DNA from: Ichthyophthirius multifiliis
Lineage: Eukaryota; Ciliophora; Oligohymenophorea; Hymenostomatida
Length of the DNA: 64,000 nt
Assembly: GCF_000220395.1 (NCBI RefSeq)
Contig: NW_004086123.1
Coordinates: 1-64,000 of the forward strand
Reading direction: 5' to 3'
Shown here: piece by piece, positions 3,442-53,951 of the stretch
How positions within the stretch are numbered: position 1 is the first letter of the stretch
Layout of the letters: the number at the start of each line of letters is the position of its first letter
Notes under the pieces: model-generated
The model's database searches: none
What the model saw: the letters and a program-made list of their open reading frames with translations, nothing else
Told to the model about the DNA's origin: nothing
Made by a program: the position numbers and the translations under genes

Positions 3442-5278
3442 TCAACTAAAATAATCTCCATTAAAATAAAAGCTTTCATTAGATTGATTTTCATTATAAG
3501 AAACTTAATCATGTTCAATTTTTTCTTTTCCTATAATCCCACAAGGTTATTTTTCAATTCTTACATTTATATAATTATCAAAGATAACTTTTACAAGATT
3601 CTTAGTTAACTCATCAAAGAAATACATAGTATCCTTGATAAAAATCATACTTAATTCATCTTAGAAAGCTTAATAATATTCTAAACCTTTATATTCATTA
3701 AATACATCTTAATCTTTAATTTAATCTTTTAATAGTTTATCCCTTTCATCATCAATAATGAATTTTAGATTTATTCCTCCTTTTTCAAGTTCAAAAAATC
3801 TTATAATGATTTTATCAGAAGATCTTTAAACAGTAAGAAAAATATTAAACCCAATTTAATCCACCACAGGTTTAATAAACCTATTATTTACAAAGGGACT
3901 TTTTATAGATAAGTCTACATTCAAGCTCCATTCATCATATTCTACATTATAAATAATAACATTTAATTCTTTTCTTCTTAATTCGACATCATCCGATATA
4001 CCTCCTAATAGATAAATGCTTTGACCATTCTAGGATTAAAGAGCAGTAGAGTTTACAATTCCAATAGGAATATCAGCTAATTGTTCCCAATCATTTTCTT
4101 TTATTGAATATCTAAAAGCTTTCTTATTAATATGTTTCGAACCATCAAACTAAATTTCATATCCCCCAATACAATAAACCCAACCGTTTAGCCACAACAA
4201 AGTAGGGGATAAACACGCAAAAGGAATATCTTTTAATTTTCTCAATCTAGATGTAGATTAATTTACATATGTAAATTCCAAAGAATAAAATGTTTAATAT
4301 TTAAACTCTTCTTTTTAAGCTCCAGAAATATACATAGTAGTTTCTCCATCAAAAGCAAACATATTATATTTAGAGAATTTATAAGGAATATGATTTTATT
4401 AAATAACTTCAGTTTTACAAAAACCAATATCATCATAAAAATTTGTAATTATATAATTCGAATTGTATCCAATCCAAAATATTCTCTTGTTTAGCGAAAT
4501 AAGTCCATTCTTTAAATCTTTTAATTCTTTTACTTATAATGATTAATAAACTTCCTTTATCTAAATACTTAACTAATCTACATCTATTTATTCCTATTAA
4601 TGTTATGCACTAATCAAACAATTATTCAAAAATTAAAAAAGACCCGGATATTCATCCAGTTTATTCCTATTTAATTATAAAATATCATTAGTAAGTGCAA
4701 AATCGCTATTTTCATCAAAATTTAATGTTGCGGTTTGATATATTAATGTGCAAGCATCGTAAAGATCATTTTAGAATTCACTTCTATTTTCCAAATACCA
4801 GCCTGCAATTTTTATTTCATCTCGATTTGTGTAATAGACAAATTTAGGTACGATATTTCCGTGTAATATACTTATGTCTTGAAGACATAAAATTGTCTTG
4901 AATACTGCTTTTAAAATATAAGCTATATGTTTTGATTTAAATGGCTTTTGTTAATTCTAGCGTTGTAATATTTCGTCCATTAAACTCATTTTACAATATT
5001 CTTCTATTAATACAACATAGTACTACACTGATGAAGTTGAAATTTCTTCTTATTCTAAATAACATTATTTAATTCCTATTAAATGCTTTGTTTATATAGT
5101 TTATTCTAGTAAAATTACAAAGTTTTAAAAATCACTTAATGATTAGATTTTAATTTTCCGCATTGAATATATATTGTCTTATATTAGAATTTAAAAAAGT
5201 GAATATTATTTTGTTTAAGAAATTAATCTTATTATTTAAATTTCTTATTATAGTTATTGTTATTGTTATTATTATTGC

Positions 5279-5327
<49 letters not shown>

Positions 5328-6495
5328 TTTGTTATTGCTATTATGGTTATTGTTATTTTTATTATTGTTATTTTTATTCCTTTTTTATTTTTTATTGTTA
5401 TTGTTATTGTTATTGTTATTGTTATTGTTATTGTTATTGTTATTGTTATTGTTATTGTTATTGTTATTGTTATTGTTATTGTTATTGTTATTGTTATTGT
5501 TATTGTTATTGTTATTGTTATTGTTATTGTTATTGTTATTGTTATTGTTATTGTTATTGTTATTGTTATTGTTATTGTTATTGTTATTGTTATTGTTATT
5601 GTTATTATTATTGTTGTTTTTCTTATTATTTATATTATTATAATTTTTATATATTTATACTTTTAGATGTATTTTTTTTTTAAATATTTTATTCTTTTAT
5701 ATCTTTTGTATCTTTTTAGCTTTTATTTATTTAAGATTATTATTCATAAAGTATGTTTTTTTGATTTTTAATATTATTAGTTTTTATTTTTTATTAATAA
5801 GTTACAATATCTTGTATATCTTTAGGAATTCTTTATAATAAATCTTCAAAGAAATGTAAAGATTTACATTTTCTTAATACCATAGTTCCTTATTATGGAA
5901 AAAGTTCATAAGAACATAGAACAGTTTCTATTTCCTTTCTTCCTAAAATATGTAACAATCCTTACTAAAAAGTGACATTTGAACCAAAGTTATATTAATT
6001 GTAGAATTTTATTTCAAAAGGTTAGTTTAAAATTTTATATGTATATTAATATTAGCGGGGATGATTAGTATTATTTAATTTATAATTTTATAATTATTTT
6101 AAAGAACTAAATGAATAAAAGCATTTATAATTAAAATCTAATGTATAAATGTTTTTTGAAGCATGCATTAAAAAAACCCCATGTTATATTTCCGTACAAT
6201 AATTTACTTATTATATTTACATTGTTAAGTTTATAAAACTTTCATATATTTCTTCTGTAGAACATGCAAAACGCAAGTTACCTTCTTTAAAATCTCCATT
6301 TTATAAAGATGTGTCAAAATAAGAATATCTTATTCCTTTTTCGAATATATTATTCGAATCATTTATACAATATATAAATTTATTATGAGGATCGTAAAAA
6401 TGAAAGGCATTTCTTCTCCATAAATAATTTCTAGGACCTTCATATACTTTATTTAATTAGTAAAAATAAATAAATATATATATATATATGTAATA

Positions 6496-6532
<37 letters not shown>

Positions 6533-8415
6533 ATTAGTTTGTTATATTTTTATATCTTTACTTTATATTTCTTCTTTCCAATCATTAGCATTAGCATTTT
6601 ATTATGTATATAAATTATTAATAATAAATGAATTATAATAAATATCGTTCGTTTCTTCATCAATGTTTATTCTATTGTTGAATATATAAACTTAAAAAAA
6701 GTAATCACTATTTGTAACACAAATGATTTAAGCATCTTATATTTCCATATTTTTTATTGATTTATAAAAAATTACTTCTGATTTTTAATTTATAATATGT
6801 CTTTATTTAGAAGTAGTATTTAGCATAACTTTTACAACTTTATTAGAATTAGGTGTAGCTAAAAAATAAAACGAATTATCAAAATTGCAAAAATTGATTT
6901 AACTTTTAAGGTTGTATTTAGCTTTTTTTCTAAATATTTTAATTAATTTGAATGTTTTACTTTCAAACTCATAAAAATGAATTTAATTTTTCCTTTTAAA
7001 AAATACATGATTATTATCATTTTTTAACATTCTTGTCCCATGATACGACAAAAAAGCTGATAAAGAATCATGTCTAAATGCTGTTTAAGGCCCTTTTTCC
7101 ATAACTCCATTAAGAGTCGTGCGTATTTATTCAATAGGTTTGCTACTTTTGACATCTGGTGAATAAATTTATTTAATAGTTTCCAAAATAATTTACGGAA
7201 GGTTCATATAATTTAGTTTTTATTCGATTTCGTCTTATGAAAAATAAAAGAAGTTTTAGAAAGAAATCTATTCTTATTTAGCCTTCATATTGTTTATTGC
7301 ACAGAAAAAATATATCATCAAATGACCAATACAAAGACAATCATATAGAAAAAAATCATAGTCCGATTTAACTTATTCATATAAAAAATGCATTTCAGAT
7401 TCGTTCCATATAAAATCAGGATTGTCTAAAAAAATCTAAATCTCATTATGGTGCAGAGTCAATATTTGAACATTTTCTGGTCTTAAATTTCTATAAGAGA
7501 ATCCTCTTGTATGCATTTTTTATATGATTTTGGCTATTTCATTCATTATATATAGTATTTTACCATAAAGTTTTATCGGGTCATCTATTAAGGCATATTT
7601 TTGTATTAATTCCGTTAATTAAATTCCCTACTCAGTAAAAGCGCGGTCTACATAGTATATTTCATTCTTTTTTATTCATAATTATTATCATTTTCTAAGT
7701 TTTCTTAAGGATCTTCCAAAAGAACATTTCCGATTTTGTAATTTTCATTATTTACATTAATGAAGGAAAAATTTAACAAGTTTTAAATTTACAAACGCTT
7801 TAATTATAGTAAATATGATAAAAAGGCTGACATTTTTGTAAAGTCTTCAAAATAACGTCTTTTGAATAAATATACATATACTTAACTTTTTATTTCTGCT
7901 TTACAAACTACTTTATGTGCCCAATAATTATAGGTAACATATTAAATCACGGCATCTTTATTACGGTTTATTGTAATTTCATTTGATTATTGCAATATAG
8001 ATAAATTATTATTGTTTTTTTCTAAGCTTTCCTCATAGCTTTGTTGTTCTTCATCTTCTTGTTCATTTTAATGTGCAATTTCTTGGCATTTTTAAATGAA
8101 TTATACCATTTGTTTTGAACGAAATTCATCATCATTTAATAAACAATTCGGAAATTATTCTTCATATGATAAAATAAAATTCTTAAATAATGGTCTGAAT
8201 AGTTTTTATAATTTTTATTTAGATTGTTAAGTGTTGTTTTTTGCTATAAATTTTTCATATTAATCTAATTTTAATGATATTTATAAATATGTTCCTAAAT
8301 AAAATTAATCATCACTTTAATTTTATTTATTATCTTTTTATAAAATCAATTTTCGCCTTTTTACTATGCTTTTGTCTTTTATTTATTATTCATTCATTGA
8401 AGCACATCCTCCCAT
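3442..8415 (-). CDS. Tandem pseudokinase/Kelch protein with poly-Gln linker and N-terminal acylation signal
   Basis: One continuous reading of about 1,619 residues. It starts at 8415 with MGGCASMN, a textbook N-myristoylation signal (Gly2, Ser6) with Cys4 for palmitoylation. Unit 1 (about 8000-6000): protein-kinase-like fold with MHTRGFSYRNLRPENV where HRDLKPEN should be and NPDF where DFG should be, then a beta-rich, probably Kelch-like propeller. A 115-base intron lies at 6561-6447. Next comes a Gln-rich linker (5640-5240). Unit 2 starts at once in the same frame: kinase-like fold with LHGNIVPKF in the catalytic loop and IAGW instead of DFG, then clear Kelch blades (VYCIGGYE, IYLLGGIS). Stop TGA at 3444-3442. 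Both kinase domains lack the catalytic Asp and DFG Asp, so they are probably scaffolds. One frame break at the 6-base T-run 7668-7673 is cured by one added base. What could be wrong: two genes could have been merged, but no TGA separates the units and the frame is open across the linker. Confidence 0.78.
5240..5616 (-). repeat. (TTATTG)n microsatellite coding poly-Gln
   Basis: A pure TTATTG hexamer array covers about 5391-5608 (about 36 copies), flanked by TTA trinucleotide runs at about 5281-5330. On the minus strand it reads CAA TAA CAA TAA, i.e. Gln only when TAA means Gln, giving about 75 uninterrupted Gln plus further Gln blocks. Because the unit is six bases, copy-number change never breaks the frame. 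The plus-strand readings (Ile-Val or poly-Leu) are shadows. Confidence 0.9.
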
Positions 8416-35718: not shown

Positions 35719-36546
35719 TCAATAATTTTAAATATTAGATAAAATTCCAGATATTCCTCCGATAATTCCTACTGATAAAATAAGGTAATTTAAAAAGGAA
35801 TTAGAAATTTAATTTTGAAATTACTTTTCAAATAAAACAATCGGAAACACAAAACCTAAGCCTACTGAAGTAATACATCCTGAAAATCCAAAAACAGTAG
35901 TAATATTAGGCGTATATATAGAGATGGAATATATAGTTAAAATAAATAATATTCTTGTTATTAATCTATTTAATTTTATATTTTCATCAATTAAATTTAA
36001 AAAATTAAATCCATATAGAACAATACTAGATAATAAACTTAATGAATATAAAATCTTCATAAAAAATCCGAATCCATTTAAATTTCCTATATTCTTAAAT
36101 ATCTATTCATTTGTTTTTTCTTAAAATGAATAATAGCCCACACTACCAACTAAAACACAACTCAAGAACATAATTAAAATATATCTTTTTTATTTATTTA
36201 AATAAATTACTAAATTTAATTTTTACCTTTTTAAAATAACATTAAATTAGTTCTTTTCCTTCATTGAAGCATATATATTTGTTATTGTTCCATTTATATC
36301 ATATGCACCTAAAAATACTCCAAAAAATATTGGGATTTGTCCCAAATTAGAAAAATAATATTGGTATTAGTCATCTTTTTTAATTTAAACTGAAGCACTA
36401 ATAATTGAAAAAACAGCTCCAAACAAAGCAAGAATTCCAATTTTACTAAAAATTGATATTTTTTCTAAATTTGGCATTAAAGCAAATGGAGTATATAAAA
36501 TTGTCAATATAAAAACTAAATTTATTATATATATAAAAATGAATAT

Positions 36547-36606
<60 letters not shown>

Positions 36607-37445
36607 ATATTAAAATAAAAAAACCTAGAATATAGTTGCTTTATACAAATTCACTTAATAAACTTTAAATATAAACCATATAGCATATAATAATAGTAAG
36701 ATTCCCAAAATAAATAAAAAATGTAGACAAAAATTTTGCTTTTGGACCTAATAAAATTTCTGATGCAGTAATTAAAGTAATTTTTTATATTTTATGAGTT
36801 TGTTCAAGCTATTTTATTACTTTTATGAGCTAAATCCATGCAAAATATGATAAAAAACCAGTGAAAGATAACATTAAAATAGTAATTAAAAAACCTGATT
36901 TTAAAAAAACATATGGCATAAAAAGAATTCCAGTTCCAAATCCTGTTTTACAAATATTAATTGTAGCATTAAATGTAGATGTGAGTTATTAAGTTTGTTC
37001 AGGTTCCTTAAATAATATATATAAATATTTATAAATATAGATAATTATATATATAAAAATATATATATATATAATTAAATATTTATTTTATATATTTAAG
37101 TATATATATATATTTATATTTATTATAATTTAAATATAAATAATATTTTATATTTTATATTTTATATATTATTATTTTATTTTATTATGTTTTTTATTTA
37201 TAAATTATATAATAAAATGTTATAATTATTTATAAAAAACCTATATTTATTCTTTTTGATCTATTTTTTCACTGTTTTCTTTATCTTAATCTTCATTTTA
37301 ATTTTTTATTTCAATATCTTGAGTTTATTCTTTTTCTTTTATTATTTCCGTGTTTTATTCTTCCCTTATTTCTAATGATTGTTTTTAATGTGGCTTTACT
37401 TCTTCTATTTATATATATGAATTCTTATCTGTCCTTTTTTTTCAT
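35719..37445 (-). CDS. Amino-acid permease of the AAAP (SLC36/38) family
   Basis: Multi-pass amino-acid transporter. Start at 37445; a charged, Gln/Glu-rich cytosolic N-terminus fills exon 1, followed by an intron of about 220 bases ending TTATTTAAG near 37012. TM1 has the family signature TFNATINICKTGFGTGILFM. Further TMs: GFLITILMLSFTGFLSYFAW and FLSTFFIYFGNLTIIICYM. After a second intron (about 36650-36515, containing a long TA repeat) come FILTILYTPFALMP, IGILALFGAVFSIISASV and IPIFFGVFLGAYDINGTI (the conserved GAYEG-like TM6 segment). A third intron lies at about 36245-36190, then TPNITTVFGFSGCITSVGLG. Stop TGA 35721-35719. The N-terminal frame needs two extra bases in the T8 run 37437-37444. 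Substrate cannot be told from sequence. Confidence 0.85.
36541..36602. repeat. (TA)n tract inside an intron
   Basis: A nearly pure TA dinucleotide array within the second intron of the permease gene. Similar TA arrays occur in the intron at 6474-6530 and at 63121-63162 and 63916-63952. Confidence 0.85.
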
Positions 37446-37808
37446 AAATAAATAGATTTTAAATTATATTGATTATTATTTATTTAAAAAAACTAAATTT
37501 TTAATAATACATTAGTTTAACTTTAATAGTAATTTTTTTTAAAAAAATATTTTTATTTTTACAGCTTTTATTTTATATAAAGATATTAAAATATAATTAA
37601 TTGAACATTTATTTAAAATTAATAAATAATTATTTTAATAATATATTATATTATTATAATCATTAATAAACTTTTTAGTATTATTTATTTATAATAATTT
37701 TTTTTATGAATTTTTAAAAAATTTGATATCAAAATGAAATGGAATATATACATAAATGTAATTTTTTTTTTTTTTAATAAAATAATTTATATATGTATAA
37801 ATTTTAAA

Positions 37809-47778: not shown

Positions 47779-50700
47779 TCATTTTTCTCCATTATCATAT
47801 TTTATTTGAATTTTTTATTATTCTTTAGTACAATTAACGGGCTTATTGTCAATTGTAGTCAAAGGAATCTATCCTAAATCAATTTATAAATTCTAGCTGA
47901 ACTTAAGAAGTACTTTAGAGTCTCTAAACCCTTCTTTTTAAAATAAAAGGAAAACTTATTAATTAAAAAAAGGTTTTCTTAACTCAATATTGAAATCTCC
48001 TGATAAATTAGCCATAGTGAATGTAATAATATTTTCTTTAAAATCATCATTATCTTAATAAAAAGCACTAACTTTGACAAAAGATAAGTCCATTTAAGGG
48101 AAAAGTTTACATTTAGTTTAAGTAAAAATTTTTCCGAAAAAATTAAAAATATTAAAATCTTGTTTATCTAGTGGATTTTCTTCTTCTAATTTAAGTATTA
48201 AGTCTTAAAGAAGATAGTTCTTTTCAAAAGTAATTTTATGTTTTTATTTTATATTCTAGATTAATATATCAGGCTCATAATCAAGGCCTTTGGAAACTCT
48301 TCCTGTTATAGAAAATTTATAAGAATTTTAAGATGTTATAGTAAAGAATGAATTTTAAGCATTAAATTAGTCATAGAAATATGTGTAAATGTTCTCACTT
48401 TTTTATTTTAAGTTTAACACTTTTCCTTATATGTAATATTATTCTTAGTATCGGCTTGTAAATAGTAATAAATCGTCTATTTAATAATCATTATTTTCCG
48501 ATAAAACGACTTCTTTGAAGCCTTTTCGGTAAAAAGAAGCATCTTTTTTCGGTTTGAATTCTAGTCTTATTAAATAGTTGTTTTATTTGATTAAATTGTC
48601 CATTTTTACGTAAAAAAAACCCTTATCATCTGATGTAAAAAACTTTTTGTCAGTTTTTATTACCTCATTGTACATGAAAATTTCACAGTTTGGTAATATA
48701 TTATTCATATTGTCCACAGTATGCCCTTTAATGTAACCTTATGTCAAGTGGGTATTCTCATGAAGCTTAATAACGTTATTTTCTGATACATATTTATTCA
48801 AAACGGAAATATGAATGGTTTTTTGGGCATCTTAAGTACCAGGATATTAAGCAGTAATATTAATATCATACGAGTATCCATATTCTTTGTAAAAAGAAAA
48901 GATGAAAAGACCTTCAGAATCGGTATAAATAGGTTTAATATAATTTTATTTATCCAAAATATGGCTTTTTCCTCCAAAATTGACATCTTCTTTAATATGT
49001 TAAACATCTAGATGAACAAATGCATTTTCTAAGGCTTTTTTATTGAATAAGACTTTTCCGGATACTTTTGCAAGATTTTTTTATCTATACATCACTATTA
49101 TAGAGTCTTCGACTAAGTAACTATTTTCATAATTAAAATCGATTTTTTCAAATGATTCTTCATATTAGTCATCAGTTATTGTGACAGAAGTCCTACACAT
49201 ATATTAGTAACCGACTTCGACTTCTTATAAAATTATTACTTTTCCAAATTCATCTGATTAACTTTTAACTGTTTATTTAAATGTATTTACTGAAATATCT
49301 TCGTCTTCTTCAACTTCATCTTAATTATTACTATTAACAGCTGCTATTTGTACTTCTGCAATAGCATTAGCTAAAGGTTAATGGAAGATATTAATAATCT
49401 TCGCTTTTAAGGTCAACATGATAATTTTTCTATCTAAATTGTATTTTTAAAATGGTAAAACGTAATTATTTTCAGAAAGTAGTTTAAAATTATAAATTTT
49501 GCTATAAAAAAAGTCATGAACAAAATGAAAAGCACCTTCATATTCCTCATTATTATTAATATTAAATTTAACGGTAAAAAATCCTTTTTTTTCTGATATA
49601 GAGGTTAGTTTTTATTCTTTTTTGGAATCTTTTAAAATTAGAATAATTTATACATTTTTAATTCCATAAAATTGTTTTTCGACTACTTATCCTTTTAATT
49701 CGTGTTAGAATTCCATAGAGTTCATATTTATTTACAATTTTTCGATTTTAAAGTTTTTATTTTTTTCGAAAATTAAATCTTAAGTATATTCTTCAAATCC
49801 TTTGGCTTAAACTTTCAATTAACCTTTTATTTATTCCAAATCTTTTAATTTTAATACCATATTTAATACAAAATCTCCATTTTTATCTGAAATAATAGCA
49901 AATTCCTATTTATTAATGGCAAAAAAAACTATTATTTTGGCTGCATTTATTGGCCTTTTTCTCATTGTTTGTACTTTTCCTGTTAACACTAGTTTAATTG
50001 GGGAAATTAAGGTCACTTAAGCATTTTGAACTAAATAGTTATTAGTCTAATCTAATCCAAAGCATTAATTTGTTTCCAAAAAATTATCAGAAGTAAATAA
50101 AATGCAAACTTTATAAGAAAATCCTTTTGTTAAATTTATTTTTGCATTGAAGTTTCCTTACAAAATTTCCACTTTAGTTTTTGCAAAAAACACTTTTTCA
50201 TTAGGTTCTTCTTTATTTTCGACAGTTAATATTTCTAAGAAACTTTTTTCTACAATTTTTTACCCTTATTAATCCTTAAGACTTCCTTATATACTAGCAT
50301 TTACCATTTCTTCAATTAAATCAATCGATACATGCCCACTTTAACTGATATATTGGTTTGTTGGGTTTATGTTTCCACTAAAAGAGCCTTTTTGACCGTT
50401 TTTGGCTTATATTTTGGCCATAAAAGTATAAGAAACACCATCGTCTACTTAAAATTCGCATAAAATAGCTCCTTTATCATTTGAACTAGGACAAGTTTAT
50501 TAATTAGTACTACTGGTACTTATTTGTGGCGTTATTTCTATTTAAATATTAGCTTCTGATATTGGTTTTTAGTTTTTTTTGTTTATTAAAACGGCATTAA
50601 TTTATGCTTTTGTTTATGCGAATAAAAGCTAAAGATTATGATTTTCCATTTTGTATTTATTGTCTTTGGATAATATTAAAGAATTATCCTTAAAAATGAC

Positions 50701-51484
50701 TTTTTATCCGATTTTAGTTCTGAAATCTAAAAAATAAGTATACTAAGGCCCTTCATCTAATACCACTTAGCACGAAAATTCTCCTTTTGAAGAGGTTTTT
50801 TATTAACATCTGTTAATTTTGTTTGCTACAATGAGAAAAACATCTGCATTTTCAACAGGTTTTTGTTGACTTTTTTCTATAAAAATACCCGATACAGTTG
50901 CTGTTACTTCCTTATTGGTAATAACTGCCTTTAAATTTTCTATCTTGTATTTATTAGTAAAAGATAATGGATCAGGACCTTAAAATGAACCTACTTATCC
51001 AGTTTATTAGGTCACTAATAAAGCATAAGAGTATTATAATCCAGACAAAACGATAAAATTTATGGAAAAAGAACCTGAAGAACTAGATGAAGTTGTTGGT
51101 ATAGGTTATTCCAATGATGGACTTGTACTAATTTAGATTTTAGAATTGATAATAGGCTTTTAAGTTTTAGAATCTATTAATTATCCTGAAATTAATGCAG
51201 GTATGCTTTTTCTTTTTAATTTAATAATAAGGAAGTCTATTAGCTTAGTAGTAGTGGATACAGTAATATCCTTTTTTGATAAAAAAGTAATAAAATGCTC
51301 TAAATCATTTATTTCTATAGTGATTTCATACATAATTTTTTCTTATAATTAGATTTTTAATGAAAATACACCAGTTTAATTAGAAATAACAGTTAAAGTT
51401 TATAGTTTATTATCTATATAATTAAATGAAATATAAAAATTTATATATAGAAAAAATATTAATATATTTAGATAATTAAATATT

Positions 51485-51517
<33 letters not shown>

Positions 51518-53235
51518 TTATATTTTTTTTATCTTTTTTTTATATATTTAACCTGCTTTCGATAAAATCTTAATTAATATTTTTACGTCTTTTAAAGGTG
51601 TTTATTTCATATTATCTTCTTGAATTTTTCCTTGAATTGTAATTTCTTACATATTTGGTTAATATACTAAGGAAATAATTCCTAGATCTTCTGTAAATTT
51701 ATTTTAATCATTTAATTTTAATTCTAAGCTTTTTGATTCATATTCACTTTTTGAAAATGTTGCTTTTCCTATGTATTCTAGACCAATTTATCCATGGATA
51801 TTTATCTAAAAAGCTCCTTTACTATCAGTTAATGCTTGTAATTTTTAATTTTAATCTTTATCATTATATTCTAATAATATCTATACACCTTATAAATATA
51901 ATTTAGTTATACTATCAACTAATTTTCCTGATACTTTACCCTAAACGCTTATATAAATTAATTATATATTTCCAAGATCTAATGTAAACTTATTTTAATC
52001 ATTTAGTTTTAAATCTTAAGTTATAGTTTTATATTCATTTTTAGAAAATGTAATATTTCCTATATATTCTAATCCAGTATATCCTTGAATATTAAAAGAA
52101 TAAGCTCCTCCGCTATCTGTTAAAGCTTATAATTTTTATTTTTAAACTTTATCATTGTATTCTAATAATACTTAAACACCTTATAAAGGTAATTTAGTTA
52201 CACTATCGACTAATTTTCCCGAAACTTTACCTTAAATTTTTTAAGGAGTTAATTTTATACTCAAGGGTAAATTATCAAAATAATTAGATTCTTTAATAAT
52301 TATTGATTATTAATAAGGATGAGGCTTAGTTATTATTAATTGACATTAAAGTGTTTATATAGGCGAATTTTAGGAAATCAAAAATGGCGAATTTTCTGAT
52401 AGGAAAGCGAAATCTCCTTTAGAATCTGAAGTTGCAGAGAGTGAAAAATCAATGTTTTTTTTTTTTTTATAGAAAATTTTTTTTAGAAGTGTTGTTTATG
52501 AATTACATTTTTCCAATTTTACTTCGACTGCATTTAAAGGCTAATTATCTTAATCTTTAATTTATCCTTTTATATTAATAGGCACAGAATTCGTTTTTAA
52601 AATTATTTTTTCGTCCAATTAAAATTTCAAGTCGTTCAAAATATAAAATCCAGTTTTATAATTTAAACTATTTTATATTAAATTATAGACTGGATAATTG
52701 CTTCTTTCGGCAATTATATTGCCTTCTATAGGTATGAATTCCTTTAAATCTTATATATTCTCAAAACATCCAGTCGTAATGTCACTTTATAATACTACCT
52801 AGTCTTAGAATATTGGCTTATCGTAACTTATCGTCACTTCTACTTTAGGAAAGGCTTTCCCAAAGCGGTCATATACACATCCTTTTACTGTTGTAGGTTT
52901 TGGATAAGGTTCTGGTTTTAAATAAAATGTTTGTTTTATATTATTCGTACTATCTAGTGTTATTGGAAATACATTTATTATTTAATATGGCGATTGACCC
53001 ACTACTAATGTTATTTTTCCTTCTTTCGATGAGGAAATTGATGAGAGACTAGATGTATGTTATATTAATCCTGTAGATGGAGATGGTGTTAATTAAAATT
53101 TTTAATTATCCAATTCTATTATTACCTATATGATTTTTTTTTTTTTTTTTTGATGGAAGTTTTTTTATTTGGCTTTTTTTTTTTTTACTTAAGCATCCTT
53201 TAATGGGTATTAGTGAACAGTTAAAAAATATGCAT
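47779..53235 (-). CDS. Giant multi-module protein with carboxypeptidase-regulatory-like/CNA-B-type beta domains
   Basis: About 1,770 residues in one strand-consistent reading. The start (53235) MHIFQLFTNTHQRM is in frame through two Lys runs to the first module. It is built from many beta-sandwich modules of about 95 residues of the carboxypeptidase-regulatory-like (CarboxypepD_reg/CNA-B) kind, recognisable by VKGCVYDRFGKAFPKVEVTI, IKGQIKDQDNQPLNAVEVKL and VSGKLVDSITKLPLQGVQVLL, each followed by a D(S/T)-G turn such as LTDSGGAYSFNIQGY. One intron (about 51553-51425; GTTAAATATAT to AATTATATAG) separates ILSKAG from DNKLQTLTV. Stop TGA 47781-47779. No membrane segment was noticed. A signal peptide is not evident from the start chosen, so an upstream exon may exist. 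Such domains usually build adhesive or surface stalks; function is not known here. Confidence 0.72.
51660..52245 (-). repeat. Two recent copies of a 291-bp (97-residue) coding module
   Basis: Within the giant gene, matching landmarks such as GATCTnnTGTAAA at 51685 and 51976 show a 291-base period (97 codons). The two modules share most residues, including GKLVDSITK and LLEYNDK, and are much closer to each other than to the other modules. Confidence 0.8.
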
Positions 53236-53951
53236 GGATTGTGTAAGTTAAGCTTTATTTTAATATCTAAATAGTTTAATGCTTGCCTTTTTAAAAAAAT
53301 TTAATTTAATTTTTTTTTTGTTTTTATACTATAAAATGCAGTTTGAAAATATTCTTATTAGATAGTTTAGTATTATGAATATAAAATTGTTGATAATATT
53401 AATGATGTTATTAAAAGGAGGAAAATTATTATTTAAGATGTTTTCATTATTTTTAATTTTTTTTATGAAATTTTAAATTTATAAATTTTATGTTTATTTA
53501 AATAAATTGTTGATTAAATATTTTTTTTATTTTTTCCTTATTTTATTCACAAATATGTTTTATTTTAATTTTCGTTTCGTTTTTTTTATTTTTATTAGAA
53601 ATAAAATATTAAATACTTAAATGAAATAAATTGTAATAAATAAATTTTTGCTATTTGCAATTTAAAGCCATTTATATAAAAAATATGTTTTATTAATATA
53701 TTAAATTAATAAATATAAAAAATAAATAAAAATTTGATAAAGATAAAAGTATTATTTTTTAAATAAAAAAATTAAATTTAAAAGAAAAATATATCTTTAT
53801 TTATTATTTAAAATATATAAGTATATATTTAAAATTAATCAGCATTAAAATGATTAAAATTAGAGGTTTTTGCAAAAATTAATATTTAAATGTATTTATT
53901 TATAAAATATTAAAAAAAAAATTTAAAAATTTTATAATAAAATAATAATAA
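53236..53951. other. Intergenic region
   Basis: About 700 bases of A/T-rich DNA upstream of the modular giant gene. It might hold a short leader exon, but none is supported. Confidence 0.5.

What the first reader, a model, noticed from the sequence alone, without database searches (positions are those of the whole stretch)
3442..8415. Dually acylated protein with two pseudokinase/Kelch units in tandem
The reading frame joins MGGCASMN (myristoylation plus palmitoylation signal), a kinase-like fold with YRNLRPEN and no DFG, a propeller, a poly-Gln linker, a second kinase-like fold with LHGNIVPKF and no DFG, and Kelch blades. I know of no described family with this order. Both kinase units have lost the catalytic Asp, suggesting a membrane-bound scaffold or sensor. 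Total coding length after removing the 115-base intron and restoring one base is an exact multiple of three.
Basis: partly seen in the sequence, partly recalled or inferred. Interest (0 to 1): 0.85.

Follow-up and report, generated by a model that had tools for sequence, protein, structure and literature searches.

The report
Ciliate double-pseudokinase membrane scaffold protein
A single ciliate gene encodes a probably membrane-tethered protein with two dead protein-kinase domains and a Kelch propeller; the same unnamed architecture is conserved in Paramecium and Pseudocohnilembus, so it is a real and apparently unstudied protein family, probably a signalling scaffold.

Summary
The window is DNA of the fish parasite Ichthyophthirius multifiliis. 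The gene at 8415-3442 (minus strand, TAA/TAG = Gln) is real and is one gene. Proteins of Paramecium (1374 aa) and Pseudocohnilembus (1043 aa, incomplete in kinase 1) share the order: Met-Gly start, kinase-like domain 1, conserved region, kinase-like domain 2, Kelch propeller. Neither has the poly-Gln joint. Profile comparison shows both kinase-like domains are kinase homologues (probability 97 and 96; shuffles at most 2). Catalytic Asp and DFG are missing wherever they can be read. Domain 2 has also lost nearly its whole activation segment: 12 residues from the DFG position to helix F in all three species, against 36-46 in 28 measured Ich kinases. 'Tandem Kelch units' is not supported: the two kinase domains do not resemble each other in sequence, and the region after kinase 1 shows no Kelch signal; it is an unrecognised, strongly conserved domain, perhaps a propeller. 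The public Ich model omits the start and kinase 1. Structure models did not themselves recover a kinase fold, so that rests on profiles. Most likely function: membrane-anchored signalling scaffold (inferred). New variant of a known kind.

The parts
8392..8415 (-). N-terminal acylation signal MGGCASMN
   Evidence: Orthologues begin MGVCVSQN and MGSICGTN; all three fit the N-myristoylation pattern (pattern recalled; regex test) and carry a nearby Cys
7621..7974 (-). Kinase-like domain 1, N-lobe (frame A), with beta-3 Lys in FKR
   Evidence: 24% identity to Paramecium over 111 columns; BLASTP E 0.001 over 40 residues
7546..7675 (-). Overlap of the two open frames; the reading frame changes once here
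   Evidence: the Paramecium orthologue is one frame across it
7040..7618 (-). Kinase-like domain 1, C-lobe (frame B): YRNLRPEN at 7495-7472, DNP at 7426-7418
   Evidence: BLASTP to Paramecium E 9e-35 (whole frame B piece) and to Pseudocohnilembus E 8e-19; hhalign of domain 1 to canonical Ich kinases probability 97.0
6562..7039 (-). First half of an unrecognised, probably all-beta region (end of exon 2)
6447..6561 (-). Intron, 115 bases, GT-AG, 5% GC
   Evidence: Paramecium coding runs on across this point
5806..6446 (-). Most conserved block of the protein (FxDPHN, QHGVF, NQPFE, EIETV); no known family
   Evidence: 49-55% identity among four sequences, 66 invariant columns; no Pfam family over cut-off
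5248..5641 (-). Poly-Gln joint coded by CAA-TAA hexamers; absent from the orthologues; translated or intronic not settled
   Evidence: TRF 65.7 copies; the public model skips 483 bases here in frame
4486..5235 (-). Kinase-like domain 2: HGN (4863-4855), GWY (4803-4795), activation segment almost absent
   Evidence: hhalign probability 96.2; spacing 12 in all three species
3532..4497 (-). C-terminal Kelch propeller
3442..3444 (-). TGA stop codon

Best explanation
It is one gene for a membrane-tethered scaffold protein that predates the split of these three ciliates. Shown by computation: the order Met-Gly start with a nearby Cys, pseudokinase 1, conserved beta-rich region, pseudokinase 2, Kelch propeller is shared, and the catalytic residues are absent in every orthologue where they can be read. 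Inferred: Gly2 is myristoylated and the nearby Cys palmitoylated, which holds the protein on a membrane; the two kinase folds do not phosphorylate and serve as docking or switching modules; the Kelch propeller and the strongly conserved central block bind partners, assembling a signalling complex at the cortex or ciliary membrane. The single frame change in this assembly is most likely a sequencing indel.
For: Orthologues: P0006, 40% identity over unit 2 and 51% over the central block, and P0007, E 7e-198. N-termini match the acylation pattern in 3 of 3. Both kinase domains match a profile of the 30 best of 135 Ich kinase matches (hhalign scores 74.9 and 65.1; 30 shuffles each, maxima 21.7 and 21.8). 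A library kinase model (NF047741) matches P0007 in two stretches, E 1.8e-9, far below its curated cut-off; the best is residues 167-341 in unit 1, the place of the other is not printed. HGN and GWY in 3 of 3 for domain 2; spacing to helix F 12 in 3 of 3, against 36-46 in the 28 of 30 canonical Ich kinases that could be measured. Kelch propeller by sequence and model. The published Ich genome was sequenced mainly by 454.
Against: No expression, localisation or binding data; scaffold function rests on analogy. Unit 1 keeps the beta-3 Lys in Ich and Paramecium, so residual nucleotide binding is possible. The kinase parts of both AlphaFold models have low confidence and no kinase is among the rows listed by the fold searches, so the kinase fold rests on profiles. 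The NCBIfam kinase model does not match Ich frame B (P0003) and matches Ich unit 2 only at E 0.079. The Pseudocohnilembus model lacks the N-lobe and a readable catalytic loop of kinase 1, so that loop is seen in two species only.
Confidence: 0.65

Rival explanations
1. Two neighbouring genes read as one: a kinase-like gene and a Kelch gene separated by the poly-Gln repeat.
For: A long low-GC repeat separates the halves; GC of the joint is 12%, like introns.
Against: No TGA in frame from 6446 to 3445; P0006 and P0007 are single predicted proteins spanning both halves without the repeat; the public Ich model also joins them.
Confidence: 0.03
2. A decaying pseudogene in I. multifiliis.
For: One frame change; catalytic motifs absent.
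Against: Motif loss is shared with Paramecium and Pseudocohnilembus, so it is ancestral. The four pieces tested stay open where few or none of 2000 simulations do. The central block is 54-55% identical between Ich and the other two.
Confidence: 0.05
3. An atypical active kinase that uses other residues for catalysis.
For: Unit 1 keeps FKR at the beta-3 Lys position in Ich and Paramecium.
Against: The DFG position is DNP, RTP or SNP in unit 1 and GWY in unit 2; the activation segment is shortened (28) or nearly gone (12).
Confidence: 0.06
4. A Kelch-type substrate adaptor for protein degradation, with the pseudokinases as substrate receptors.
For: The closest solved folds listed for the C-terminal propeller are Kelch domains, many from BTB-Kelch proteins.
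Against: No BTB, F-box or other ligase-binding domain listed in Pfam scans at E up to 1.
Confidence: 0.1
5. The frame change is real biology: a 47-base GT-AG intron, 7631-7585.
For: Of 4 GT-AG stretches of 16 or more bases inside the overlap, it is the only one whose length (47) fits the frame change; the shortest Ich intron reported is 16 bases.
Against: Its GC is 25.5%, like exons; Ich introns have 12.3% overall. It would delete residues that align with Paramecium coding sequence (my reading of the alignment).
Confidence: 0.1

Closest known systems
Plant BRASSINOSTEROID-SIGNALING KINASES (BSK3; PMC6336344, abstract and section list read)
   Same: N-myristoylated, kinase-fold protein proposed to act as a plasma-membrane scaffold, with a C-terminal protein-binding repeat domain
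   Different: One kinase domain and TPR repeats, no Kelch; no sequence link was tested
DFG-less MGN/MGQ kinase-like family of I. multifiliis (loci L058-L072; no name known to me)
   Same: Met-Gly start; no DFG in 15 of 15; kinase 2 matches its profile at probability 96.7 over 81 columns; all 4 non-self own-genome matches to unit 2 are at loci of this family
   Different: 12 of 15 keep the catalytic-loop Asp as HxDxRPxN; a long activation segment (50-51 in the 7 of 15 measured, counted from a motif start about 4 residues before the DFG position); the member scanned, L005, has one kinase domain over the Pfam cut-off and no Kelch
PPKL / BSU Kelch phosphatases, present in Tetrahymena (PMC3143110, passages read)
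   Same: Kelch propeller fused to a signalling-enzyme domain
   Different: Phosphatase rather than kinase folds; no phosphatase match here
BTB-Kelch proteins such as KBTBD4, KLHL7, Keap1
   Different: No BTB domain found; 11-14% identity

Membership tests
Protein kinase superfamily, as pseudokinases | Profile similarity to protein kinases | tested here: met
   hhalign probability 97.0 (domain 1) and 96.2 (domain 2) vs 30 Ich kinases; shuffles at most 2.2
Protein kinase superfamily, as pseudokinases | Kinase fold in a structure model | tested here: inconclusive
   Low pLDDT in the kinase parts; no kinase among listed rows, which were filled by propellers
Protein kinase superfamily, as active kinases | Catalytic Asp (HRD) | tested here: not met
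   YRN (Ich) and YRF (Paramecium) in domain 1, unreadable in Pseudocohnilembus; HGN in 3 of 3 in domain 2
Protein kinase superfamily, as active kinases | DFG motif | tested here: not met
   DNP, RTP, SNP in domain 1; GWY in 3 of 3 in domain 2
Protein kinase superfamily, as active kinases | Activation segment of normal length | tested here: not met
   28 (domain 1) and 12 (domain 2) residues to helix F, vs 36-46 in 28 of 30
Kelch propeller (C-terminal domain) | Kelch repeats and propeller fold | tested here: met
Kelch propeller (region after kinase 1) | Kelch repeats or propeller fold | tested here: inconclusive
Tandem duplication of one kinase-Kelch unit | Sequence similarity between the two units | tested here: not met
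   Kinase 1 vs 2 hhalign score 18.9, probability 0.7 (no shuffle control for this pair); beta regions 20.9, within shuffles (max 25.2); BLASTP nothing
N-acylated membrane protein | N-myristoylation and palmitoylation | tested here: inconclusive
   Pattern met in 3 of 3; the modification itself cannot be tested here
Plant BSK family | C-terminal TPR repeats | tested here: not met
   No TPR match listed at E up to 1 in P0007
PPKL Kelch phosphatase | Phosphatase domain | tested here: not met
   No phosphatase match listed
BTB-Kelch | BTB domain | tested here: not met
   No BTB match listed
Ich MGN/HGDIRP DFG-less family | Catalytic-loop Asp and a long activation segment | tested here: not met
   HGN and spacing 12 in domain 2; the profile match shows kinship, not membership

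The most novel reading that the evidence does not exclude
An ancient ciliate family of membrane-anchored proteins carrying two different dead kinases and no live one, in which pseudokinase 2 has shed its activation segment and the conserved block between the kinases is a new domain family that does the main work, with the kinases acting as intramolecular or partner-controlled switches.
Probability: 0.4. Interest if true: 0.6.

Novelty: new variant of a known kind. Interest (0 to 1): 0.5.

Why it matters
It gives ciliates a conserved protein (whole in the Paramecium record) with two dead kinases in one chain, a combination I do not recall elsewhere. It makes testable what pseudokinases do once catalysis and substrate binding both look impossible. 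It also shows that public gene models hide it: the Ich model starts in the wrong frame and lacks kinase 1, the Pseudocohnilembus model lacks part of it, and the Pfam scans run here put only Kelch repeats above cut-off.

Tried and rejected
BLASTP between the two units and hhalign of kinase 1 vs 2 and of the two beta regions found no duplication. PDB profile search with the central block listed only two chains, E 0.02 and 0.084, unrelated in kind. The PDB search with P0003 alone gave kinases only at E about 1, with two ribosomal-protein rows above them; with unit 2, PLK4 at E 0.073 was the best kinase. No kinase appears among the 50 rows shown; the tool says a missing fold is not excluded. The own-genome search with P0007 matched only this gene (only best candidates are scored). 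One weak non-self match to P0003 (L007, E 4e-4) covers its end, which includes the intron read as codons, and was set aside. Profile search A3 listed four proteins and no Tetrahymena protein, but only the 7994 candidates sharing most words were scored, so absence from Tetrahymena is not shown. In one search I read L002, L003 and L004 on the wrong strand; later showed that all three places belong to the MGN family. One search's own motif column misread some of these loci; the alignment is used instead. Alignments A1, A2, A5, A8 and A9 misplaced short pieces and were not used for conclusions. Nine paper searches listed no paper on this architecture; three listings were cut (20 of 32, 10 of 117, 10 of 165), and only listings were seen apart from passages of PMC3341644 and PMC3143110 and the abstract and section list of PMC6336344.

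Full report
What the window is. The protein search returned a 100% identical protein named 'kelch motif family protein, putative [Ichthyophthirius multifiliis]' on a contig of 74916 bases (P0005). The window lies on contig C701, also 74916 bases, of a 45 Mb, 937-contig assembly. TAA and TAG read as Gln. GC is 15.9%, the value the genome paper gives for Ich (PMC3341644, passages). That paper describes mostly 454 sequencing; that this assembly is the same one is likely but not shown.

The gene. On the minus strand, frame A is open from 8415 to 7546, frame B from 7675 to 6443, and the last exon runs from 6446 to the TGA at 3444. A 115-base GT-AG intron (6561-6447, 5% GC) joins frame B to the last exon. 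Exon pieces outside the linker have 20-24% GC, the linker 12%, the intron 5% and the flanks 7-11%; the paper gives 24.1% for exons and 12.3% for introns. Frames A and B overlap over 7675-7546, so the frame changes once there. The Paramecium orthologue aligns on both sides of that point in one reading frame, so a sequencing indel is the simplest cause. A 47-base intron is possible but weaker.

The public model is incomplete. P0005 (886 aa) maps to 6585-5662 and 5175-3445. It starts in a wrong frame, reads through the intron as coding, and skips 483 bases with the poly-Gln stretch. It therefore lacks the acylated start, kinase-like domain 1 and, if that stretch is coding, about 20 residues at the start of kinase-like domain 2 that align with Paramecium.

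Orthologues. A search with unit 2 found P0006 of Pseudocohnilembus persalinus (1043 aa, E 1.3e-107). It matches the central block at 51% and unit 2 at 40%, the C-lobe of kinase 1 at E 8e-19, and starts MGVCVSQN. Its N-lobe of kinase 1 and part of the next region are missing from the model. A profile search found P0007 of Paramecium pentaurelia (1374 aa, a cluster of 18 sequences, E 7e-198) and a 204-aa fragment, P0008. P0007 starts MGSICGTN and contains both kinase-like domains; frame B matches it at E 9e-35 over 394 columns, and the N-lobe of frame A at E 0.001 over 40 residues. Neither orthologue has the poly-Gln tract between the units. A two-gene reading is therefore very unlikely.

Are they kinases? 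Pfam sees them only below cut-off: E 0.0026 in Ich unit 2 and 0.0087 in Paramecium unit 2; no kinase family in unit 1. Profile-profile comparison with 30 canonical Ich kinases (the 30 best of 135 matches) gives probability 97.0 and score 74.9 for domain 1, and 96.2 and 65.1 for domain 2; 30 column shuffles each reach at most 21.7 and 21.8. One NCBIfam kinase model matches P0007 in two stretches at E 1.8e-9, the best in unit 1, far under its curated cut-off; it does not match Ich P0003 and gives E 0.079 for Ich unit 2. The AlphaFold model of unit 2 has a kinase-like order of strands and helices (my reading) but low confidence there; unit 1 is lower still. No kinase is among the fold-search rows shown. 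The kinase assignment therefore rests on profiles.

Are they dead? In domain 1 the catalytic loop is YRN (Ich) or YRF (Paramecium), the DFG position is DNP, RTP or SNP, and the spacing to helix F is 28 in 3 of 3. In domain 2 the loop is HGN in 3 of 3, the DFG position GWY in 3 of 3, and the spacing 12 in 3 of 3. Canonical Ich kinases measure 36-46 in 28 of 30 (two did not fit my pattern). The loss is shared by these species, and domain 2 has little room for an activation segment. Domain 1 keeps the beta-3 Lys in Ich and Paramecium.

Relatives in the same genome. Searching Ich with L005 gave 85 matches, of which the weaker ones may be ordinary kinases. Fifteen were fetched, the query's own locus included. 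All 10 whose match reaches query residues 1-4 begin MG; 14 of 15 have an in-frame MG at or before the start, which for partial matches may be chance. HxDxRPxN is present in 12 of 15, LGE at the DFG position in 9 of 15, and DFG in none. All 4 non-self own-genome matches to unit 2 fall on loci of this family. Kinase 2 matches the family profile at probability 96.7, score 75.8 over 81 columns; kinase 1 less well (62.5, score 41.0); no shuffles were run for these two. Kinase 2 may derive from this family.

Function. Membrane anchoring is inferred from the N-terminus; loss of catalysis from sequence; partner binding from the Kelch propeller and the conserved block. The closest working analogue is plant BSK3, an N-myristoylated kinase-fold protein proposed as a scaffold (PMC6336344, abstract). 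It is an analogy only: TPR repeats were not found here. I put about 0.9 on one conserved gene with two dead kinase domains and about 0.65 on the scaffold mechanism.

Novelty. No paper with this architecture appeared in the nine search listings. Ciliate pseudokinases as a class are known (38 suspected in Ich), so this is a new variant of a known kind.

Noticed in passing
loci L058-L072 (own genome): An I. multifiliis family of kinase-like proteins that begin MGN or MGQ, with HxDxRPxN in 12 of 15 and no DFG in 15 of 15 fetched (85 matches at E up to 0.001, the weaker ones perhaps ordinary kinases).
   Followed up: partly
window 6585-3445: The public gene model P0005 starts in a wrong frame, reads the 115-base intron as coding (YIYIYI run) and skips the poly-Gln stretch.
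   Followed up: yes
window 5641-5248: A hexamer array of CAATAA read as Gln-Gln through the reassigned TAA codon; about 66 copies.
   Followed up: partly
window 3140 downwards, minus strand: The next gene seems to start MNFSSIITGITHVVFSPDSNFIAISNG, which looks like a WD-repeat protein with introns (recalled resemblance, not tested).
   Followed up: no
window 47782-53443, minus strand: Two long overlapping frames each with a carboxypeptidase-regulatory-like domain (Pfam E 1e-11 and 1e-13).
   Followed up: no
window 35722-37659, minus strand: Amino-acid transporter domain (Aa_trans, E 2.3e-13).
   Followed up: no
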